Of a DNA stretch of 37,429 nt, positions 12,682-27,011 are shown one piece after another. Position numbers and translations under genes: made by a program. Below the pieces are notes generated by a model that did not search any database, had not been told where the DNA came from, and saw nothing but the letters and a program-made list of their open reading frames with translations. The DNA is from Candidatus Omnitrophota bacterium (GTDB taxonomy: Bacteria; Omnitrophota; Gorgyraeia; Gorgyraeales; Gorgyraeaceae), in the NCBI GenBank assembly GCA_030691625.1, contig JAUYDX010000051.1, forward strand, positions 1 through 37,429, given 5' to 3'. Numbering within the stretch: the stretch's first letter is position 1; the number at the start of each line of letters is the position of its first letter.

Positions 12682-12726
12682 AAACAACTTGACACTTCAA
12701 ACATTGTCACAAGTGTAAAGTTGTTT
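12682..12726. repeat. Palindromic repeat family 2, copy a
   Basis: Arms AAACAACTTGACACTT and AAGTGTAAAGTTGTTT pair except for one G/A position; the loop is 13 bases containing AACATTGTC. It fills the space between the rtcB stop (which lies in the arm) and serS. Related copies are at 30139-30181 and 32756-32798. Confidence 0.8.
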
Positions 12727-15715
12727 AGCCCTTGATGACTCCAAGCGGACGCATGCGGCAGACCTTTGTTGAAAGCCCGGCTCCATGCACCACATCCACT
12801 ACCTCGTTCACATCCTTGTAAGCCTCTGGCGCTTCTTCTGCCAGAGTGCCCCTGGATTTAGCTCTGACTATTATACCACTTTTTTGAAAAAGTTCTCTAT
12901 CAATTTGTCTTCCGTGGCATGCCTTGATAGCGCCTGAGCGGGAAAGCCGTCTGCCTGCGCCGTGGCATGTAGAACAAAATGTCTCGCTGGCTCCTTTGGC
13001 GCCTGCCAATAGAAACGAGTTCCTTCCCATGTCTCCAGGTATTATAACAGGCTGCCCTGTTTCTTTATACGCCTTGGGCAAATCAGGATGCCCTGGCGGA
13101 AATGCCCGTGTTGCGCCTTTTCTGTGAACGCAAAGGAGTTTTTCCCTGCTGTCCACAATATGCCTTTCCATCTTAGCGATATTATGCGCCACGTCGTAAA
13201 CAAGCCTTAACCCAAGAGAACTCCAGCTTTTATTAAACACCTTTTCAAAGACATTCCTCGCCAGATGCATAAGGCACTGCCTGTTTGTCCAAGCGTAATT
13301 CGCGGCGCATTTCATTGCTGCAAGGTAAGCCTTCCCTTCCGGAGAATTAAGAGGCGCGCACGCCAACTGCCTGTCAGGCACATTGATATTATATTTATCC
13401 AGACAGCTCATCATGCCCTTTACGTAATCATCGCATATCTGATATCCCAGGCCGCGCGAGCCGGAATGTATCATCATTGTAACCTGGCCCTTGAACAAAT
13501 CGAAGATGCCGGCGTTTTTCTCGTCATAGATCTCATCCACCACCTGTATCTCTAAAAAATGATTTCCTGAACCCAGTGTGCCTGATTGGTCCTTTCCTCT
13601 TTCATATGCCCTTTTTGAAACACCTTGTGGGTTGGCGCCTTCCATGCATCCATTATCTTCTGTGAATTCTAAATCCTCTTTTACGCCATAGCCTTTTTTT
13701 ACTGCCCATTCAGCGCCTTTTAAAAAAATCTCGTCTTCGTCCCTGGCGTTTGCCCTGATATCGCCGCTTGACCCAATGCCTGAAGGGATATTATTAAAAA
13801 GAGAATTAACCAGTTGCTCTAATCTGGGTTTTACATCCTGCAGGACTAAATCGCTCCTTAACAATCTCACCCCGCAATTTGATACGACAAAATTATTGGC
13901 AATAAAATTATGATGCGGATGAGCTACTGTAAAATCATAAACCCAATCACCATACTCTGCATTACAGATATGCTCTATTCTTTCCCAGACCATGCCTGAT
14001 TTGCCTAATCCATAGGTGGCCTTTTCAATATAATCTTCAAACGTAGGATCTTTACCCCACATCCTGGGTTCCCTCTCTATTAACCCATAAAGAGAGCGTT
14101 CAATAAATCTCTTAGATATGCGTTCTGATGAAAAGGCATTATAAATAGCCTCTGGACTCCATTTGCTGTTTAATTTTAACTTTGGCGCCATAGTTACAAC
14201 TTCTCTTCTTTGAGCTGTTATCCTGTCTTTTGATCTCAAATACCCGGCGGCTGCATTAGCTAAAAATTTACGTTTTTCATTATATTCAAAACCGATTCTG
14301 CTATAGAGTTTGAGCAAATTCTGCGTCTCGCTTGATATCATCAGGCGTAAACGATACGAAACAATACCTTCTTTATTGACATATTCTTTTCTCTGGCTTA
14401 TTTGATGAGTGCGCACACCAAAATCTGAAAGTAAAATGCCTATATCTTCCAGAAATTTCCTTCCATTTTCTATATCCCCATAAGTTTTGTTCATGGAAAC
14501 TGTAGGGCAATAAAAATTATACCCATGACCTGTCAAAGTTTTTGGAGAAGACATCTCTGCCCCAAAGAAACCTGCCAGAAATAACCTCTTCTGCCAAAGA
14601 GGAGCGCTAAATAACCATTTTGGAAATTCGTACGGTTGGCGGCATTTATTACCTATCGGCATGCCTAATGACGCCAGAAGTACGGCGAAACTTGACGAAG
14701 CTACCTTAAGCCATGTTTCCTTTCTGTCAAACTCATAAGTCGAATAACTGGTATCTATATGATGGCGTTTATTCCTTGAATATATCCCAGTTTTAAAACC
14801 TATTTTTTCTATATCAGATTTTATTTTTATTAAATCTTCTTCTTCGCCGTAGAAACAGGTATTCCCTTTCTCTTTTTTGTTTACAAAATAAATCAGGCCA
14901 TCTCCAAAACAATAACCCATAATCTTAAGTAAGCAGGGAAACTGGGAGGAATCGTATCTTAACGGCAGTAAATTTCTTTTTTCAAGCTGATTCAATATCT
15001 GCTCAATAGCATTTCCTTTGGAGCTTTTCCCTAAGTTAAGTAAAAGTTTTTTGATGCCTTCTTTGTCAGCAATTATATCTGAACTTGGCGCTTCATACTT
15101 AACTCCCTCAAAAGGATAGACAGCAACTTCTTCATATAGCTTTAATCTGCTTACAGGCTTCATCCCGTCCTTGGTATAAAACGGGTGATCTTCTGTTGCT
15201 GTTATGCGCCTAAGCGTTTCAGTAACAATATCAAGCACTGTATGTTTTGGCTTTTGCTTTAAAAATCCTATGATCTCTGTGGGCTCTTCTTTTTCTGTGG
15301 TAAAATTCAAACATTTTATCTGCGTTTTCTGGAAATTATTTTTAAAATCTTTAATCTTAATACTATACCCTAATTCATTTAGAATTAAGGCATCCTCTGA
15401 AAGGCAACAAATATCATACCCAATTGCGCCTGGCGCAACTACTCCACTTTTATCAGGATCAACTGCTGCTACACCACCGATTGCCATACCATAACCCCAA
15501 TGGATATCAGGCATGGCAAGGGAATATTTCACTATGCCTGGCAGGAACGCCACATTTGCCACCTGTTCAGGGGCTTTGTCATTGATTATTTCCGGGAAGA
15601 GCTTGTCGTTTGCGTAGATGATGCCGGGGACTTTCATCCCTGGTTTATAGGATTGGGGGATTTTCCAGCGGAACTCGTCGAGTTTTTCTAATTTACCCTC
15701 AAATGCCTGGGCCAT
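12725..15715 (-). CDS. rtcB: RNA-splicing ligase RtcB, interrupted by an intein
   Basis: This 3'-phosphate RNA ligase joins 2',3'-cyclic phosphate and 5'-OH ends. The frame opens at a GTG (15721), but the ATG at 15715 is the more usual start. The 488 extein residues match the ~480 of intein-free RtcB. Active-site segments are CGVRLLRSD (metal-binding Cys), GTLGSGNHFLEIQ, MIHSGSRGLGYQ, YDVAHNIAKMERH and VHRKGATRAFPPGH (guanylated His region). The intein (13877-15406) lies immediately before the active-site Cys, so the ligase is inactive until splicing. Archease, its activator, is encoded directly upstream with touching ends. Confidence 0.95.
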   Translation of the reverse strand: MAQAFEGKLEKLDEFRWKIPQSYKPGMKVPGIIYANDKLFPEIINDKAPEQVANVAFLPGIVKYSLAMPDIHWGYGMAIGGVAAVDPDKSGVVAPGAIGYDICCLSEDALILNELGYSIKIKDFKNNFQKTQIKCLNFTTEKEEPTEIIGFLKQKPKHTVLDIVTETLRRITATEDHPFYTKDGMKPVSRLKLYEEVAVYPFEGVKYEAPSSDIIADKEGIKKLLLNLGKSSKGNAIEQILNQLEKRNLLPLRYDSSQFPCLLKIMGYCFGDGLIYFVNKKEKGNTCFYGEEEDLIKIKSDIEKIGFKTGIYSRNKRHHIDTSYSTYEFDRKETWLKVASSSFAVLLASLGMPIGNKCRQPYEFPKWLFSAPLWQKRLFLAGFFGAEMSSPKTLTGHGYNFYCPTVSMNKTYGDIENGRKFLEDIGILLSDFGVRTHQISQRKEYVNKEGIVSYRLRLMISSETQNLLKLYSRIGFEYNEKRKFLANAAAGYLRSKDRITAQRREVVTMAPKLKLNSKWSPEAIYNAFSSERISKRFIERSLYGLIEREPRMWGKDPTFEDYIEKATYGLGKSGMVWERIEHICNAEYGDWVYDFTVAHPHHNFIANNFVVSNCGVRLLRSDLVLQDVKPRLEQLVNSLFNNIPSGIGSSGDIRANARDEDEIFLKGAEWAVKKGYGVKEDLEFTEDNGCMEGANPQGVSKRAYERGKDQSGTLGSGNHFLEIQVVDEIYDEKNAGIFDLFKGQVTMMIHSGSRGLGYQICDDYVKGMMSCLDKYNINVPDRQLACAPLNSPEGKAYLAAMKCAANYAWTNRQCLMHLARNVFEKVFNKSWSSLGLRLVYDVAHNIAKMERHIVDSREKLLCVHRKGATRAFPPGHPDLPKAYKETGQPVIIPGDMGRNSFLLAGAKGASETFCSTCHGAGRRLSRSGAIKACHGRQIDRELFQKSGIIVRAKSRGTLAEEAPEAYKDVNEVVDVVHGAGLSTKVCRMRPLGVIKG
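13877..15406 (-). mobile_element. Intein with LAGLIDADG homing endonuclease in RtcB
   Basis: The 510-residue insertion begins CLSEDALI (Cys106 of the long frame, block A), has TATEDHPFYT (block B with its TxxH), and ends HPHHNFIANNFVVSN before extein Cys (blocks F and G). The residue before the final Asn is Ser rather than the usual His. Between these are two LAGLIDADG-like helices, IMGYCFGDGLIYF and LFLAGFFGAEMSS; in the second, the metal-binding acid is Glu. Length and motifs suggest a full-size intein with a possibly active endonuclease. The insertion point, just before the catalytic Cys, is the one I recall for archaeal RtcB inteins. Confidence 0.93.
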
Positions 15716-15717
15716 AA

Positions 15718-16146
15718 TCACACATCAAAAATAATAGCGCAGCTAAAACCCTCCACAGCTTCTTCAATCTTAAGGTTGTGAAAAGTCACTGCCTTTATCT
15801 CTGTGTAGCTGGAAGACTGGTAAAGATCTATGGTTGAACCCTCGATCTCCGCCGTGAGGCCTGAATTATTCAGTCCCAATATCCTGAAACTGTCTATACA
15901 TATCTTTTCTTTGCTGAAGATATAGAGGAGCTCTGAGAGCCAGTTTACCAGAAGGTCTTCCAGGACATCTGTGGTATTTTTTATTTCTAATTTCTTAGTT
16001 ACCCTTTCTCCTTTTAACGGGCCCTTGCCGCAGGAGATAATGTGAAACATGCCTTTTGCTGAATTTTCAAATAACTCGATGAGGGTAACACCCCGCGCTT
16101 TGATGCCGATATCTGCGGTGTGGTCAATAATCTCATAGGGTTTCAT
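15718..16146 (-). CDS. Archease, activator of RtcB
   Basis: This 142-residue protein begins KPYEIIDHTADIGIKARG, the archease signature with its metal-binding Asp/His, and ends with ITE-type beta strands (YTEIKAVTFHNLKIEE). Archease speeds RtcB guanylation and multiple turnover. Its stop codon overlaps the possible GTG start of rtcB, so the two are co-translated. tRNA-Lys lies 6 bases upstream of its start. Confidence 0.95.
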   Translation of the reverse strand: MKPYEIIDHTADIGIKARGVTLIELFENSAKGMFHIISCGKGPLKGERVTKKLEIKNTTDVLEDLLVNWLSELLYIFSKEKICIDSFRILGLNNSGLTAEIEGSTIDLYQSSSYTEIKAVTFHNLKIEEAVEGFSCAIIFDV

Positions 16147-21961: not shown

Positions 21962-23101
21962 ATGAAAAAAATAAGATTAATGATCCTTGCCGGCGAGGCA
22001 TCCGGCGACCTCCAGGCAGCAAACCTCATAAAATCCCTGAAATCCATTGATCCGCGCATGGAATTCTTCGGCATGGGCGGGAAAAAGATGCAGGCCGAAG
22101 GCGCGGAGATCATATACGACATCACAGACCTTGCCATAGTGGGCTTCTTCGAGGTGGTGAAACACCTGGTTAAGTTTAAAAAAATATTCGAGAACCTGTC
22201 AGGGCTACTGGAAACAAGAAAACCAGACGCTGCAATACTCGTGGATTACCCTGGGTTTAACCTGAGATTCGCAAAGACTGCCAAAGAAAAAAATATCCCT
22301 GTCATCTACTACATAAGCCCGCAGATCTGGGCGTGGGGAGAACAAAGAATCCATGAGATTAAGAAATACGTGGATAAGATGGTGGTGATTTTCGGATTTG
22401 AGGAAACTCTTTACAAAGAGGCCGGGGTAAAAGTGAGTTTCGTAGGGCATCCGTTCTTAGACATAGTGAAACCCGTCTGGAAAAAAGAAGAGACCATTAA
22501 AACATGCCACATGAAGCACGATTCAATAAAAATAGCCCTTATGCCGGGCTCCAGAAAAAAAGAGATAGAGAAGCACTTGCCAGCCATGCTAAAGGCTTGC
22601 GAGATTATCAAAAATAAAATCCCAAACGCGGAATTCATAATCTCAAAGATCAAGGAATTAGACCAGGAACTTTATCATAAAATCATAAACAGGTCTAAGA
22701 TAAAACCTCATTCCCTGGACAATAAACCTTACGAGGTCATGGATATAGCGGACATGGTGATAGTTTCATCAGGAAGCGCGACGCTGGAAGTCGCTATCAT
22801 GGAAAAACCAATGGTGATTATCTACAAAACCTCGTTCCTAACCTGGCTACTCGCGCGAAATCTTGTCAAGATACCTGACATAGGCCTGGTAAATATAGTG
22901 GCGGGCGAAAGAATCGTGCCTGAACTTGTGCAGTTCGACGTGACTGCAAAAAATATCGCTAAAGCCGCTCTCGACATCCTGACTGACCACAAAAAAATCC
23001 ACGGGATTAAAGAAAACCTTAGAAAGGTAAAATCCAAACTCGGCGAGACAGGCGCCTCTTCCCGCGCAGCCCACGCCATCCATAAATTCCTGAATCCTTA
23101 G
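21962..23101 (+). CDS. lpxB: Lipid A disaccharide synthase
   Basis: This 379-residue GT19 enzyme joins UDP-diacylglucosamine and lipid X at the inner membrane. Signatures are LMILAGEASGDLQAANLIKS, FGMGGKKMQAEG, YYISPQIWAWGEQRI, SFVGHPFLD, ALMPGSRKKEIEKHLP and VSSGSATLEVAIMEKPMVII. Its stop (TAG, 23099-23101) overlaps the stop of the convergent gene, so no terminator fits between them. Confidence 0.97.
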   Translation: MKKIRLMILAGEASGDLQAANLIKSLKSIDPRMEFFGMGGKKMQAEGAEIIYDITDLAIVGFFEVVKHLVKFKKIFENLSGLLETRKPDAAILVDYPGFNLRFAKTAKEKNIPVIYYISPQIWAWGEQRIHEIKKYVDKMVVIFGFEETLYKEAGVKVSFVGHPFLDIVKPVWKKEETIKTCHMKHDSIKIALMPGSRKKEIEKHLPAMLKACEIIKNKIPNAEFIISKIKELDQELYHKIINRSKIKPHSLDNKPYEVMDIADMVIVSSGSATLEVAIMEKPMVIIYKTSFLTWLLARNLVKIPDIGLVNIVAGERIVPELVQFDVTAKNIAKAALDILTDHKKIHGIKENLRKVKSKLGETGASSRAAHAIHKFLNP

Positions 23102-24996
23102 ATAGAATTTCTGGTTACTGGTTTTTTTAGAAACTGGAAAAACCGTTTTATTGCAGAAGTCTCGCCTGTTATCTTTTCACTTTTTACTATAATTAATTCT
23201 CCGGGCCCATCGCTCGTCTCTATAGGAATATTATAATGCCTTATATTATTAAGCCCGCATCTCTTTAAAAACTTTTCATAATCCCTGGGCGTGAAGTCTT
23301 TGATCTTTCCTTCGGTTTCCGCATCGTAAACTATAACCAGATATCCTCCTTCTTTTAAAAATCCCGTGGCATTTAAAAGCGTGCTTTCTGTCTCTTCTTC
23401 AGTGAAAAAATGAAACGCATTTGAAATAACTATAATTTTAAACTTTTTTCTGGTTCCGTCGTTATTTTTTAATACGTCTCCGAGTCTTGGCACATATCGG
23501 AGGCCTTCAGGAAAAATACTGGCCTCTTTAAGCGAAATATCTACCTTATCCTTATAAGGCGCGAGTTTTTCTCTAGCTCCCTTGAGCATCTCTTCAGCTA
23601 AGTCTACGCCTACAACGCTCGCGGGAAAACTCCTGTCCTTAAGCGCTCCTATTTTAGTCAAAGAATCTATCTTTTCTAATAACAGCTCCAAAACAACGCC
23701 TCTGCCTGTCGCCAGATCCAGCACATCCTCTCCCCTCACTATCTCAAGCGGGACTGGATATGAATTATCTGGCCCAAAAATTCCGCTAATAGCTTCTCTC
23801 ACAGATTCTCTTTCATCAAAACTGTACACTACGCTCATATACGTCAATAATATCTGCAATTCCCTCAATGCCGGGTTTTTAATTTTTGCCCGCCTAAACT
23901 CTTCCGGGCTCTTTTTCTCTATGCTGCCTGTCCTGGATATCAAAGAACAGTTTATATTACCTCCCGCGTCTATATCATTCCAATCCCAGTAAACCAGCCA
24001 GGTATTTCCCCTGTCATCTTTGCCAGCGTGGGTTTCTGTATTATCGGTCATTGTCTCCTGCGAAGAAAGGGCCCTTCGTCCAGATGTCCTGGATTCTGTT
24101 CCCATAGGGTCTTCTAATGAGATATCTGCGACCCTGCGCCAATTTGAAGTGTTTCTCAATAATTTGAGAAGTATTTCGCTATCTGTTTCCCTTCCTGGCA
24201 AAAGGCAATATTCTACACCTGAAACCGGAAGTTCTCCTAACACCAAAACATGGCTGACCATTTTATTCGATCCTCTATAAACAGAAATTTTTCCACGCGC
24301 CCATGATATAAGGATAGCGTCTATAGAAATTCTGTAGATAGCCGGGGTTCTGATAAGTTTGTCTATAATAGCGGCTCCATAGTTTAGCTTAACGGAACGC
24401 AGCATGGATTCGGCTAATTCCAGACCGGTGATTTCTGTTTCATTCGTTGTAAAAGGGACGACTGTTGACTTCGGATCCGTATAATTATAAGCCCACTCTC
24501 GCATAATCAACATCGCATTAGTCGGCGCTTCTCTTTCCTCAAACCTGCCGGGATGCCCGACATCAGTCATTACCTTTTGACCTCTGCATAAATCTTCCAC
24601 TGCAACATGAAACTCTCCTCTAAGTATGCTACGCTCATCTGATATAAGATTATTCCTGGCCTTGCTGATAATCCCCAGCGTTAGATTATCCACATGATAC
24701 GCAAAAGGTTCTTTTCTGAGCCTCTCTATCACCCATGCTATATCCGGAAATCGCGCTTTGTCTCCAAGGTTTCTTTCTATTATCCGCCAAAGATTTTCTC
24801 TTATCTTATTTTTCTCGGTCTCCGGAGTTTCAGGATCCATAAGCCTATAATCCTCGTCAGAAACAAGCCCTGCGGCAACCTGATATCCTGGATAGGATTT
24901 AGCGCCTTTACCAAAATCCATAGGTTTTCTAAGGCCATAACTAACCCCGTCAAACAAAAATATAAAGGTTATGAGCAGCGTTATGATTTTTTTCAT
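23098..24996 (-). CDS. Exported protein with SAM-methyltransferase domain (paralogue 1)
   Basis: 632 residues. Residues 1-20 (KKIITLLITFIFLFDGVSY) form an export signal, followed directly by GLRKPMDFGKG. Residues ~30-300 match no family I know. A module with GNTWLVYWDWN (330-340) precedes a class I methyltransferase domain: motif I VLDLATGRGV (425-434), then VVGVDLAEEMLKGAREKL, IIVISNAFHFF and GGYLVIVYDAE. The module plus methyltransferase is shared with 25092-27011. Exporting a SAM-dependent enzyme is odd, since SAM is cytoplasmic. A short hairpin (24999-25014) abuts the ATG and there is no Shine-Dalgarno. Confidence 0.7.
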   Translation of the reverse strand: MKKIITLLITFIFLFDGVSYGLRKPMDFGKGAKSYPGYQVAAGLVSDEDYRLMDPETPETEKNKIRENLWRIIERNLGDKARFPDIAWVIERLRKEPFAYHVDNLTLGIISKARNNLISDERSILRGEFHVAVEDLCRGQKVMTDVGHPGRFEEREAPTNAMLIMREWAYNYTDPKSTVVPFTTNETEITGLELAESMLRSVKLNYGAAIIDKLIRTPAIYRISIDAILISWARGKISVYRGSNKMVSHVLVLGELPVSGVEYCLLPGRETDSEILLKLLRNTSNWRRVADISLEDPMGTESRTSGRRALSSQETMTDNTETHAGKDDRGNTWLVYWDWNDIDAGGNINCSLISRTGSIEKKSPEEFRRAKIKNPALRELQILLTYMSVVYSFDERESVREAISGIFGPDNSYPVPLEIVRGEDVLDLATGRGVVLELLLEKIDSLTKIGALKDRSFPASVVGVDLAEEMLKGAREKLAPYKDKVDISLKEASIFPEGLRYVPRLGDVLKNNDGTRKKFKIIVISNAFHFFTEEETESTLLNATGFLKEGGYLVIVYDAETEGKIKDFTPRDYEKFLKRCGLNNIRHYNIPIETSDGPGELIIVKSEKITGETSAIKRFFQFLKKPVTRNSI

Positions 24997-24998
24997 AA

Positions 24999-25083
24999 GG
25001 TATTTTGCAATACCCAGGGCCTATAATCCACAGGACAGCTTAACCTTAGGGAGGTATGCGCTATCCATGTGGATATACAGGCC
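24999..25083. promoter_or_regulatory. Structured intergenic DNA ahead of methyltransferase paralogue 1
   Basis: A small hairpin GGTATT-TTGC-AATACC (24999-25014) touches the start codon region. Next to it is a long imperfect hairpin (25018-25083): GGCCT/AGGCC, ATCCACA/TGTGGAT and GGACAGC/GCTATCC with one C-A mismatch, closing a ~20-base loop. It could be an RNA leader element of the downstream gene or a palindromic repeat. No clear promoter is seen. Confidence 0.45.
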
Positions 25084-25091
25084 TGAGTTAT

Positions 25092-27011
25092 CTAAATGTC
25101 AGAGGCACGGGGGAGGCCATCAAAAAGAGTTCTAACTTTCATCTTGGTTTCCAATAACTGCCGCAACGACACATGCCTGGCAGTATAATATTCTGCAGGC
25201 GGTATGGCATCTTCTTTAGCCATCCATTTGATTAAATCCTCTCTTATCCTGCCCTGTTCATCTACCGGGATTATTGGCAGGTCTCCCACAGCCATGCCTA
25301 AGATATTAATAGTCCCGAATAAAAGTTCTTTCCTCTCTTGGCCAATTCTTTTCCAAAAAAACCCGCCCTGAGCTGCCCATTCAAGAGGAGAATCGCCGCC
25401 TATATCTTTTCTTTCCTGGCCTTTTCCTTCTATCTCTATTTGTTCTACATGCGCATGCGGCCCAGCTCTTCCAGTAAGATAATCTACATAGTGATATTTA
25501 AATAACCTCCCAGATCTTTCTGTCCTTTCTTTCTTCTCGTCAAATTGCGTTTTAAGCTCATCCATCCATTTAATTAATTGCTGATAACCTTCGTGGTCTA
25601 CATTTCCGTAAAGCTTAATGGCATGTCTCAAAATATAACTTTGAACAAAGTGCAAATTCCTATTGCAGCCGTTTTGGCAAAATTCGATAAATCTCTTATA
25701 AGAACTGTTTATATCGAGCTCTTTAATGTTTACATCTGGATGCGGATAATCTAAAAAAAGTTTGCGCCTTTTTAACCATGTATTTATTAACAAGTTGCCT
25801 ATCCTGTCGTCATCTAAATTTTTTATTTTAAGCATTTTGACAACATCATCCAGTCTTATCTGCCTCCTTCCTGCAACTATTATGTGGGTATTTGTTACAG
25901 TCTCAAGTTCGCTTATTTCGTAATCCTCATCTGTTTCTACAGCTCCTATATAGTGCCTTACGTCTTCCAAGTTCAATTCTCTGAAAACGCGCTTGTAATC
26001 TTCCGGTTTATATCTTTTAAAACGCTCCTGATCTTCAGTTAAGGTATCATAAACGATAACCAGATATCCTCCTATTTCTAAAAATTGCAGGGCGTTTGAT
26101 AATAAACCTTCTGTTTCTTTTTCGTTAAAGAAGCAGATAGCGTTGGCGATAATAATGACATCGAACTTCATTAAAGCACCGTCTTTCTCTCTTAATAAAT
26201 CTTTTAGGCGGGGTATGTCCTGCTTTCCTTCTTCTAAAAAGCTTCCCTGCAAAAACTCGATGTCCACCTTTCCCTTATATTGTTCTAAGTTAGCTTTTGC
26301 TCTATTGAGCATCTCGGAAGAGATGTCCAGACATATAATCTTTTCAGGGAATTCCACATTCTCCCCTGCGTTCTTCTTCTTGGCAATCTCATCCAGTAAT
26401 GTTTTAGGTACTATACCCCTTCCTGTTGCCAGGTCTAATATTTTACGTTCGCTCGTTGCCTCTAACGACACTGCTGGTTTTGAATTCGGGCCATACGCTT
26501 CAGGAATAAAAATATGCCTTATAGCCAATCTTGCTTCCGGCCGCTCATCAATATTATAGTCATTTCTTTTCCCACGCAAATTATATAATTTTTCTATCTG
26601 CAATTCTTTTGAAACCTCATTATCGAAGACCGCGGATGAAAATCTATTGTCATTAGCATTAGTAATGTTTCCTGCGCGATCTATTAAAACATATTTTGTT
26701 TGGCCGTCTTGTTCATAAACTACCCATGCATTTCCCTGTATGTCCTGATCCCAATAAATGCCTTTTGACCTCATAGAATCCAGTTCTTCTTCGCCTAGGT
26801 ATTTTTCTGCTTCCTCTAAAGTATTCGCCTCTTTTATAAATCTAGCTGCTATGTTAATAAACATCATAGCCTTGTGCTCAGTTGAATCACTGCTGTTTCC
26901 AAAAGAAAGGCCGGGCCTTAAACCGTTTGCCTGCACAATGCGTTCAGAGGAATACGCGAGGTTTTGGCACATCAATATAGAAATTGTAACTGTAATTATA
27001 AGTTTTTTCAT
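25092..27011 (-). CDS. Exported protein with SAM-methyltransferase domain (paralogue 2)
   Basis: 639 residues from ATG at 27011 (a TTG at 27017 is also in frame). The signal KKLIITVTISILMCQNLAYS is followed by NGLRPGLSFGNS, matching the GLR-P-FG stretch of the neighbour. Residues ~85-125 (GNAWVVYEQDGQTKYVLIDR) match the neighbour's pre-methyltransferase module. Motif I ILDLATGRGI lies near 193, then ICLDISSEMLNRAKANLEQY, VIIIANAICFF and GGYLVIVYDT. A ~280-residue C-terminal region (residues ~360-640) is unique, rich in charged and aromatic residues, and unrecognised. No Shine-Dalgarno; a terminator-like hairpin lies in the leader. Confidence 0.7.
   Translation of the reverse strand: MKKLIITVTISILMCQNLAYSSERIVQANGLRPGLSFGNSSDSTEHKAMMFINIAARFIKEANTLEEAEKYLGEEELDSMRSKGIYWDQDIQGNAWVVYEQDGQTKYVLIDRAGNITNANDNRFSSAVFDNEVSKELQIEKLYNLRGKRNDYNIDERPEARLAIRHIFIPEAYGPNSKPAVSLEATSERKILDLATGRGIVPKTLLDEIAKKKNAGENVEFPEKIICLDISSEMLNRAKANLEQYKGKVDIEFLQGSFLEEGKQDIPRLKDLLREKDGALMKFDVIIIANAICFFNEKETEGLLSNALQFLEIGGYLVIVYDTLTEDQERFKRYKPEDYKRVFRELNLEDVRHYIGAVETDEDYEISELETVTNTHIIVAGRRQIRLDDVVKMLKIKNLDDDRIGNLLINTWLKRRKLFLDYPHPDVNIKELDINSSYKRFIEFCQNGCNRNLHFVQSYILRHAIKLYGNVDHEGYQQLIKWMDELKTQFDEKKERTERSGRLFKYHYVDYLTGRAGPHAHVEQIEIEGKGQERKDIGGDSPLEWAAQGGFFWKRIGQERKELLFGTINILGMAVGDLPIIPVDEQGRIREDLIKWMAKEDAIPPAEYYTARHVSLRQLLETKMKVRTLFDGLPRASDI

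What the first reader, a model, noticed from the sequence alone, without database searches (positions are those of the whole stretch)
23098..27011. Two exported proteins with methyltransferase domains and a shared GLR-P-FG start
Both proteins begin with an export signal, then GLRKPMDFG or GLRPGLSFG, then distinct regions around a shared module plus a class I SAM-methyltransferase. A SAM enzyme with a signal peptide is hard to explain unless SAM is exported, the signal is a membrane anchor facing inward, or the domain is repurposed. The matching post-signal motif may be a sorting or processing tag of a larger family. The LDLATGRG motif I is also non-standard.
Basis: partly seen in the sequence, partly recalled or inferred. 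Interest (0 to 1): 0.68.

Follow-up and report, generated by a model that had tools for sequence, protein, structure and literature searches.

The report
Tagged, exported "second set" of enzymes
Two neighbouring genes in an uncultured Omnitrophota bacterium belong to a large, apparently undescribed class of exported proteins that carry matching tags at both ends but are built like enzymes that normally work inside a cell, which suggests a dedicated delivery route, perhaps into the cells this lineage may prey on.

Summary
Both proteins (A, 632 aa; B, 639 aa) start with a signal peptide and an LR(x)P tag, and share a ~275-residue module (39% identity) containing a class I SAM-methyltransferase.

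They are part of something larger. A profile of the signal peptide alone, with no tag in it, finds 25 usable places in this genome; 19 have LR(x)P just downstream. Family-wide the consensus is [TS]-L-R-[VPKI]-P-[LMI].

Tagged proteins also end in L, I or V: 56 of 68, and 24 of 26 in a hold-out, against 47 of 216 control ORFs. They are poor in cysteine (0.42% against 1.35%), and leader charge predicts export.

Of 79 tagged proteins scanned, 43 match a Pfam family, nearly all cytoplasmic kinds: methyltransferases, histidine-kinase-type ATPases, a full FliA-type sigma factor, phosphofructokinase, triosephosphate isomerase, glutamate dehydrogenase. Ordinary signal-peptide proteins of the same genome are secretins, PBP, MreC. 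For the last three enzymes, canonical untagged copies coexist with divergent exported ones.

Most likely LR(x)P and the C-terminal end are sorting signals. Delivery into another cell's cytoplasm is my best guess, inferred, not shown. The "non-standard motif I" claim is not supported.

The parts
23098..24996 (-). protein A, 632 aa: signal peptide, LR(x)P tag, unique N-terminal half, shared module with SAM methyltransferase
   Evidence: Pfam
24937..24996 (-). signal peptide of A (residues 1-20)
   Evidence: sequence; profile hits (A was not in the profile)
24910..24936 (-). tag of A, GLRKPMDFG (residues 21-29)
   Evidence: sequence; consensus
24022..24909 (-). unique half of A (residues 30-325), no Pfam match (0 families in the slice scanned)
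23209..24021 (-). shared module of A (residues 326-596)
23311..23736 (-). class I SAM-methyltransferase domain of A (residues 421-562), motif I LDLATGRG
23101..23115 (-). C-terminal end of A, ...TRNSI, fits the C-terminal tag
25092..27011 (-). protein B, 639 aa from the ATG at 27011
   Evidence: Pfam
26949..27011 (-). signal peptide of B (residues 1-21)
   Evidence: sequence; profile hits (B was not in the profile)
26898..26924 (-). tag of B, GLRPGLSFG (residues 30-38)
   Evidence: sequence; consensus
25926..26747 (-). shared module of B (residues 89-362)
26043..26453 (-). class I SAM-methyltransferase domain of B (residues 187-323)
   Evidence: structure of the whole shared module
25095..25847 (-). 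C-terminal module of B (residues 389-639), also found inside long ORFs of other Omnitrophota and as a separate tagged protein in a relative
25095..25106 (-). C-terminal end of B, ...ASDI

Best explanation
A and B are two of at least 18-19 exported proteins of this genome, and of a class spread over its whole taxonomic family. Each has a Sec-type signal peptide, then within about 0-17 residues of its hydrophobic core's end or likely cleavage site the tag [TS]LR(x)P[LMI], then a variable body of cytoplasmic enzyme type, then a hydrophobic C-terminal residue. I think they work like this. (1) Sec carries them across the inner membrane and signal peptidase cuts (predicted from sequence and composition). 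(2) LR(x)P at or near the new N-terminus, and the L/I/V end, are read by a sorting or second-step secretion machine (inferred from two independent terminal signatures on unrelated bodies). (3) The cargo ends in a compartment with SAM, ATP, NAD and possibly DNA and RNA polymerase. The most plausible such place is the cytoplasm of a cell to which the bacterium is attached, where A and B would methylate an unknown target (inferred). The arsenal turns over fast between species, like effectors, and overlaps in modules with the phylum's giant proteins.
For: N-tag, profile blind to it: 19 of 25 own-genome places. C-tag: last residue L/I/V in 56 of 68 tagged proteins against 47 of 216 control ORFs, p 2e-19; it was not part of any search, 67 of the 68 remain after removing similar C-termini, and conservation runs over the last ~7 residues. 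Hold-out fetched afterwards: 24 of 26, or 22 of 24 strict. True export: cysteine 0.42% against 1.35% in soluble control ORFs, p 5e-15; hold-out 0.48%; N-in/C-out charge in 66 of 69. Cargo: of 79 scanned, 43 have a Pfam family over its cut-off; 3 of these are repeats only, and of the 40 others just one (a glucoamylase) is a usually secreted kind. Ordinary signal-peptide proteins of the same genome: secretin x3, PBP, PilO, MreC, TPR, nuclease. Second copies: TIM 15 canonical plus 3 tagged; PFK 35 canonical plus 7 divergent, 6 with a readable start and all 6 with a signal peptide and an LR tag; GDH 11 canonical plus 5 divergent, all with signal peptides, 2 of them LR-tagged. TIM catalytic K/H/E kept in two copies. 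Full FliA-type sigma factor behind the leader, E 8e-50 to a solved sigma factor. Fast turnover: A has no full-length homologue in 18 other genomes of the family.
Against: Nothing shows localisation, cleavage or delivery. Not all active sites are intact: one tagged PFK lacks the usual TIDND motif, and the tagged glucosamine-6-phosphate deaminase has D to E in its catalytic stretch (active-site role recalled). 36 of 79 bodies have no Pfam match over cut-off. The exported sigma factor has no tagged orthologue in 18 other genomes. No receptor or translocon was identified. Housekeeping enzymes are odd effectors. No lifestyle evidence exists for this lineage; predation is described for other Omnitrophota.
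Confidence: 0.45

Rival explanations
1. Exported and repurposed: enzyme folds captured as building blocks of surface or extracellular proteins (adhesins, binding modules, decoys), with catalysis irrelevant. LR(x)P and the C-terminal end would then be surface-sorting tags only.
For: Modules are shared with long Omnitrophota ORFs, for which an adhesive or coat role has been proposed (PMC10066038, passages). Exported copies are strongly divergent (PFK 1e-27 to 1e-34 against 1e-102 to 1e-120), and some catalytic motifs look altered.
Against: Catalytic K/H/E in two TIMs, N/G1/G2-like boxes in all five HATPases checked, and the GSxAxG...DxD pattern in the nucleotidyltransferase are kept. Sigma factor, LuxR and ArsR HTH domains are complete enough for strong Pfam matches.
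Confidence: 0.27
2. An internal compartment: tagged proteins build a second metabolism in an extracytoplasmic or membrane-bounded space of the Omnitrophota cell itself, the LR(x)P tag acting like a bipartite organelle signal.
For: Cargo includes glycolysis, gluconeogenesis and glycogen enzymes as divergent second copies.
Against: Sigma factor, LuxR/ArsR HTH and histidine-kinase-type domains make little sense without DNA and RNA polymerase there. The repertoire varies strongly between species.
Confidence: 0.13
3. Inward-facing anchor: the N-terminus is an uncleaved membrane anchor and the enzyme stays in the cytoplasm.
For: It would explain SAM, ATP and NAD users without any export.
Against: Positive n-region and neutral post-region in 66 of 69, short hydrophobic core (mean 13 residues) and cysteine depletion all point outward.
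Confidence: 0.06
4. Ordinary: two paralogous methyltransferases with a chance similarity of leader.
For: Adjacent genes of one family often share leaders.
Against: At least 18-19 unrelated bodies in one genome share the tag, and a second, independent terminal signature goes with it.
Confidence: 0.01

Closest known systems
Lipoprotein export signal (LES) of Bacteroidetes (PMC5080379; passages read)
   Same: Short motif just after the signal-peptide cleavage site that routes proteins onward from the periplasm; shown there to be sufficient.
   Different: LES is K-(D/E)2 or Q-A-(D/E)2 next to a lipidated cysteine. Here the motif is LR(x)P at variable distance, with no lipobox consensus, and there is a C-terminal signature too.
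PEXEL (Plasmodium) and RxLR (oomycete) host-targeting motifs (PMC1464399; search listing only; details recalled)
   Same: Signal peptide, then a short motif a few dozen residues in, then unrelated and fast-evolving bodies.
   Different: Eukaryotic, different motif; here the cargo is mostly housekeeping-type enzymes and the last residue is constrained.
Giant proteins of Omnitrophota (PMC10066038, PMC12419801; passages read)
   Same: Same phylum. B's C-terminal module lies inside ORFs of about 2,700 to 35,000 aa. Methylases, kinase parts and sugar enzymes are reported in giants and seen here.
   Different: Most proteins here are 300-2,000 aa with complete enzymes. None of the passages I read mentions a post-signal tag, a C-terminal tag or second copies of central enzymes.
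Polymorphic toxins and CDI effectors (recalled)
   Same: Exported, modular, variable bodies.
   Different: No toxin or immunity pairing seen next to A and B; bodies are metabolic and regulatory enzymes. Not searched with a toxin library.

Membership tests
class I SAM-dependent methyltransferase | Pfam match over curated cut-off | tested here: met
class I SAM-dependent methyltransferase | Rossmann-type fold | tested here: met
   model confidence moderate
class I SAM-dependent methyltransferase | SAM binding and catalysis | not testable with these tools
   motif I D-x-A-x-G-x-G present by eye
Sec signal-peptide protein | positive n-region, hydrophobic core, small residue at cleavage | tested here: met
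   (charge and core only; cleavage judged by eye; no SignalP available)
Bacteroidetes LES lipoprotein | lipobox cysteine and acidic K-(D/E)2 motif | tested here: not met
   residue counts; motif definition
PEXEL or RxLR effector | RxLxE/Q/D or RxLR after the signal peptide | tested here: not met
   consensus is LR(x)P; motif definitions recalled
PEXEL or RxLR effector (works like) | delivery into another cell | not testable with these tools
   no experiment possible
Omnitrophota giant protein | shared modules | tested here: met
Omnitrophota giant protein | ORF longer than 20 kb | tested here: not met
   A and B are 632 and 639 aa
inner-membrane protein with cytoplasmic domain | N-out/C-in charge bias, cytosolic cysteine content | tested here: not met

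The most novel reading that the evidence does not exclude
A bacterial counterpart of PEXEL/RxLR host targeting. Omnitrophota use a two-ended address (signal peptide plus LR(x)P, and an L/I/V end) to ship a second, divergent set of central-metabolic enzymes, methyltransferases, kinase-type ATPases and even a sigma factor into the cytoplasm of attached prey or host cells, reprogramming them by protein delivery much as phages do with auxiliary genes.
Probability: 0.33. Interest if true: 0.97.

Novelty: categorically new. Interest (0 to 1): 0.85.

Why it matters
It gives a sequence signature with which the secretome of a large, almost uncultured phylum can be listed, and it links ordinary-sized proteins to the phylum's unexplained giant proteins. 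If the tag is a delivery address, it makes 'how do Omnitrophota act on other cells' directly testable. If it serves an internal compartment or a surface coat of enzymes, that would be as unexpected: I recall no bacterium that exports divergent second copies of PFK, TIM and GDH and a sigma factor. My literature searches (open-licence PMC papers only, no preprints) turned up no description of the tag. A more cautious filing would be 'new variant of a known kind' (a post-signal-peptide sorting motif); I chose the stronger one because of the cargo.

Tried and rejected
Considered and rejected: (a) that the tag is general to exported proteins; ordinary signal-peptide ORFs in random stretches lack it. 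(b) That LDLATGRG is odd; it is a normal motif I. (c) That A and B are a strain oddity; a same-genus genome has a locus with purF and lpxB orthologues and several tagged genes with other bodies between them. (d) Structure of B's C-terminal module: AlphaFold pLDDT 70, pTM 0.46, too weak to search with. (e) Viral contigs: no relative of B. (f) A first DNA-pattern search for GLRP after ATGAA was set too narrowly and missed both A and B; uninformative. (g) Counting genomes with any hit of the tag profile in the phylum (164 of 285 at E up to 0.01) is not a count of tagged genomes, because ordinary leaders match too. By eye, LR tags outside the family are clear in G139, G160, G057, G161 and G017; G279 and G021 have LR without the P; others show LAVPSRF, LIPPSIF or LAPSLRF. 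Of 12 complete proteins outside the family 6 end in A, 3 in L or I, so the L/I/V rule is a rule of this family.

Dropped before counts: from 71 fetched hits, 3 without LR and 1 with a broken frame or wrong start; 67 remain, plus A and B = 69; one open 3' end leaves 68. Hold-out: 29 hits, 3 with open 3' ends dropped; 3 of 28 places with ORFs under 65 aa not read. The tag profiles A1 and A3 contain the tag, so its frequency among their hits is inflated by selection; one search is the fair test (10 of its 40 rows are own-genome leaders, cut before the tag). Some hold-out proteins are relatives of training proteins.

Full report
WHAT IS THERE. The window is one contig of a 1.44 Mb assembly of 101 contigs. 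Contigs of two genomes of the same genus coincide in length, and one also in match coordinates, with named Candidatus Omnitrophota / Omnitrophica records (G211:C24 = JAPLMD010000019.1; G293:C26 = CAKKRB010000026.1), so I take the lineage to be Omnitrophota. A (23098-24996) and B (25092-27011) lie on the minus strand. In B, the ATG at 27011 is the better start. They share a 39% identical module with a class I SAM methyltransferase. A's first half has no Pfam match. B's C-terminal module matches parts of ORFs of 2,686 to 35,009 aa in other Omnitrophota (7 of the 12 genomes with hits) and stands alone as a tagged 276-aa protein in a relative. No other close copy of the module exists in the own genome.

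THE N-TERMINAL TAG. A profile of six leaders from A, B and relatives found 15 places in the own genome and at least one in all 19 genomes of the family. I fetched 71 of these. 60 have LR.?P after the leader, 7 a degenerate LR, 3 none, 1 has a broken frame. Position counts over the 67 with LR: T, S or A before L in 44; V, P, K or I after R in 55; P at +3 in 53; L, M, S, I or V at +4 in 65. Because that profile contains the tag, I repeated the search with leaders cut before it: 19 of 25 readable own-genome places have LR.?P within 30 residues, including A, B and six others that were not in the profile. Random stretches of the same genome show it in 1 of 11 signal-peptide-like ORFs, a second genome in 0 of 19 and E. 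coli in 0 of 10.

THE C-TERMINAL TAG. I did not search for this. The last residue is L, I or V in 56 of 68 tagged proteins and in 47 of 216 control ORFs (p 2e-19). Information above random interior positions runs from -1 to -7, with S/G/A at -2, T/S/N at -3 and R at -4 favoured. Removing proteins with similar C-terminal 40-mers leaves 67, of which 55 end in L/I/V. Twenty-nine more hits were then fetched as a test; 26 have LR and a complete end, and 24 of the 26 end in L/I/V. Outside this family the rule differs: of 12 complete proteins with related leaders, 6 end in A and 3 in L or I.

EXPORT. The n-region charge averages +2.7 and is never below +1; it exceeds the charge of the 15 residues after the core in 66 of 69 and equals it in 3; the core averages 13 residues. 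Cysteine is 0.42% against 1.35% in soluble control ORFs and 0.87% in ORFs with a hydrophobic segment. Hold-out: 0.48%. I read this as real export rather than an inward anchor.

CARGO. I scanned 79 LR-bearing proteins against Pfam; this is most, not all, of those found. 43 have a family over its curated cut-off; 3 of them are repeats only (HEAT, WD40, TPR). The other 40 include methyltransferases, HATPases, Pol-beta-type nucleotidyltransferase, sigma-70 (regions 2, 3 and 4), LuxR and ArsR HTH, PFK, TIM, FBPase, starch synthase, phosphorylase, glutamate, saccharopine, acyl-CoA and proline dehydrogenases, PRPP synthetase, ThiG, NAD epimerases, UDPGP, PP2C, LMW phosphatase, HAD, HIT, GNAT, APH and B12-binding. 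Only the glucoamylase is a usually secreted kind. Ten ordinary signal-peptide ORFs (10 of the 11 of the own-genome sample) gave secretin (3), PBP transpeptidase, PilO, MreC, TPR, SNase and two without match. Complete enzymes begin just after the leader: TIM at residue 57, sigma at 59.

SECOND COPIES. TIM: 15 canonical copies in ORFs of 205-270 aa, and 3 further copies in tagged ORFs. PFK: 35 canonical in 19 of 19 genomes, plus 7 divergent full- or part-length copies in ORFs of 664-4,101 aa; 6 starts are readable and all carry a leader and an LR tag (in one, G290:C54, LRVP lies some 90 residues in), while the seventh (own genome, C76) is open at both ends. A 64-aa fragment and two hits below the cut-off are left out. 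GDH: 11 canonical, 5 divergent in ORFs of 903-3,982 aa, all with leaders; 2 are LR-tagged and 3 have a different post-leader sequence, SKS-(I/L)-FKNKKV; seven hits of about 65-85 residues in ORFs near 320 aa, and two below the cut-off, are left out. The own genome also keeps an untagged RpoD-like and a FliA-like sigma factor. Active sites: TIM K, H and E kept in two copies; HATPase boxes kept in five of five; nucleotidyltransferase motif kept; one PFK altered; GDH lysines largely kept (by eye); NagB D to E (by eye).

MECHANISM. Shown by sequence statistics: leader, two terminal signatures, export-like composition, cytoplasm-type cargo. Inferred: that the tags are sorting signals, and that the destination is a cytoplasm. 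The argument for another cell's cytoplasm is the DNA-binding and sigma cargo, the fast turnover of bodies, and reports on a relative: a predatory Omnitrophota with open cytoplasmic contact to its prey (PMC13153191, passages), and giant proteins with methylases proposed to act on prey (PMC12419801, passages). I hold the complete chain at 0.45.

COMPARISON. It works somewhat like the Bacteroidetes LES (PMC5080379, passages) and like PEXEL/RxLR (recalled; listing), but belongs to neither by motif. It shares modules with giant Omnitrophota proteins but is not defined by size.

Noticed in passing
12725-15721 (-): RtcB (tRNA-splicing ligase) ORF of 998 aa appears to contain an intein (Intein_splicing 113-615).
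   Followed up: no
L095:968-5410 (own genome C66), L102:14365-16080, L320, L321, L322: A second leader class in the same genomes: signal peptide, then a sequence like SKS(I/L)FKNKKV(D/N)Y.KLS, mostly on long proteins, three of them with divergent glutamate dehydrogenase.
   Followed up: partly
G104:C9:33543-138569 (-), loci L030-L035: Single open frame of 35,009 aa in an Omnitrophota genome (record UBA6233); holds a copy of B's C-terminal module.
   Followed up: partly
L098:487-1731 (own genome C98): FliA-type sigma factor with regions 2-4 behind a signal peptide and LRKP; untagged RpoD-like and FliA-like factors also present.
   Followed up: yes
L348:1507-3081 (own genome C53): Protein with an export-type leader (tag read uncertain: IRVP, with LRPEF further on), a B12-binding domain and a sub-cut-off radical SAM match.
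   Followed up: no
L315 (own genome C76, whole contig): Open frame of 4,101 aa without a stop over the whole contig, holding a divergent PFK.
   Followed up: no
L023:1735-7070: Same-genus genome, between purF and lpxB orthologues: five tagged genes, two of them near-duplicate leaders (LRNPLVCG).
   Followed up: partly
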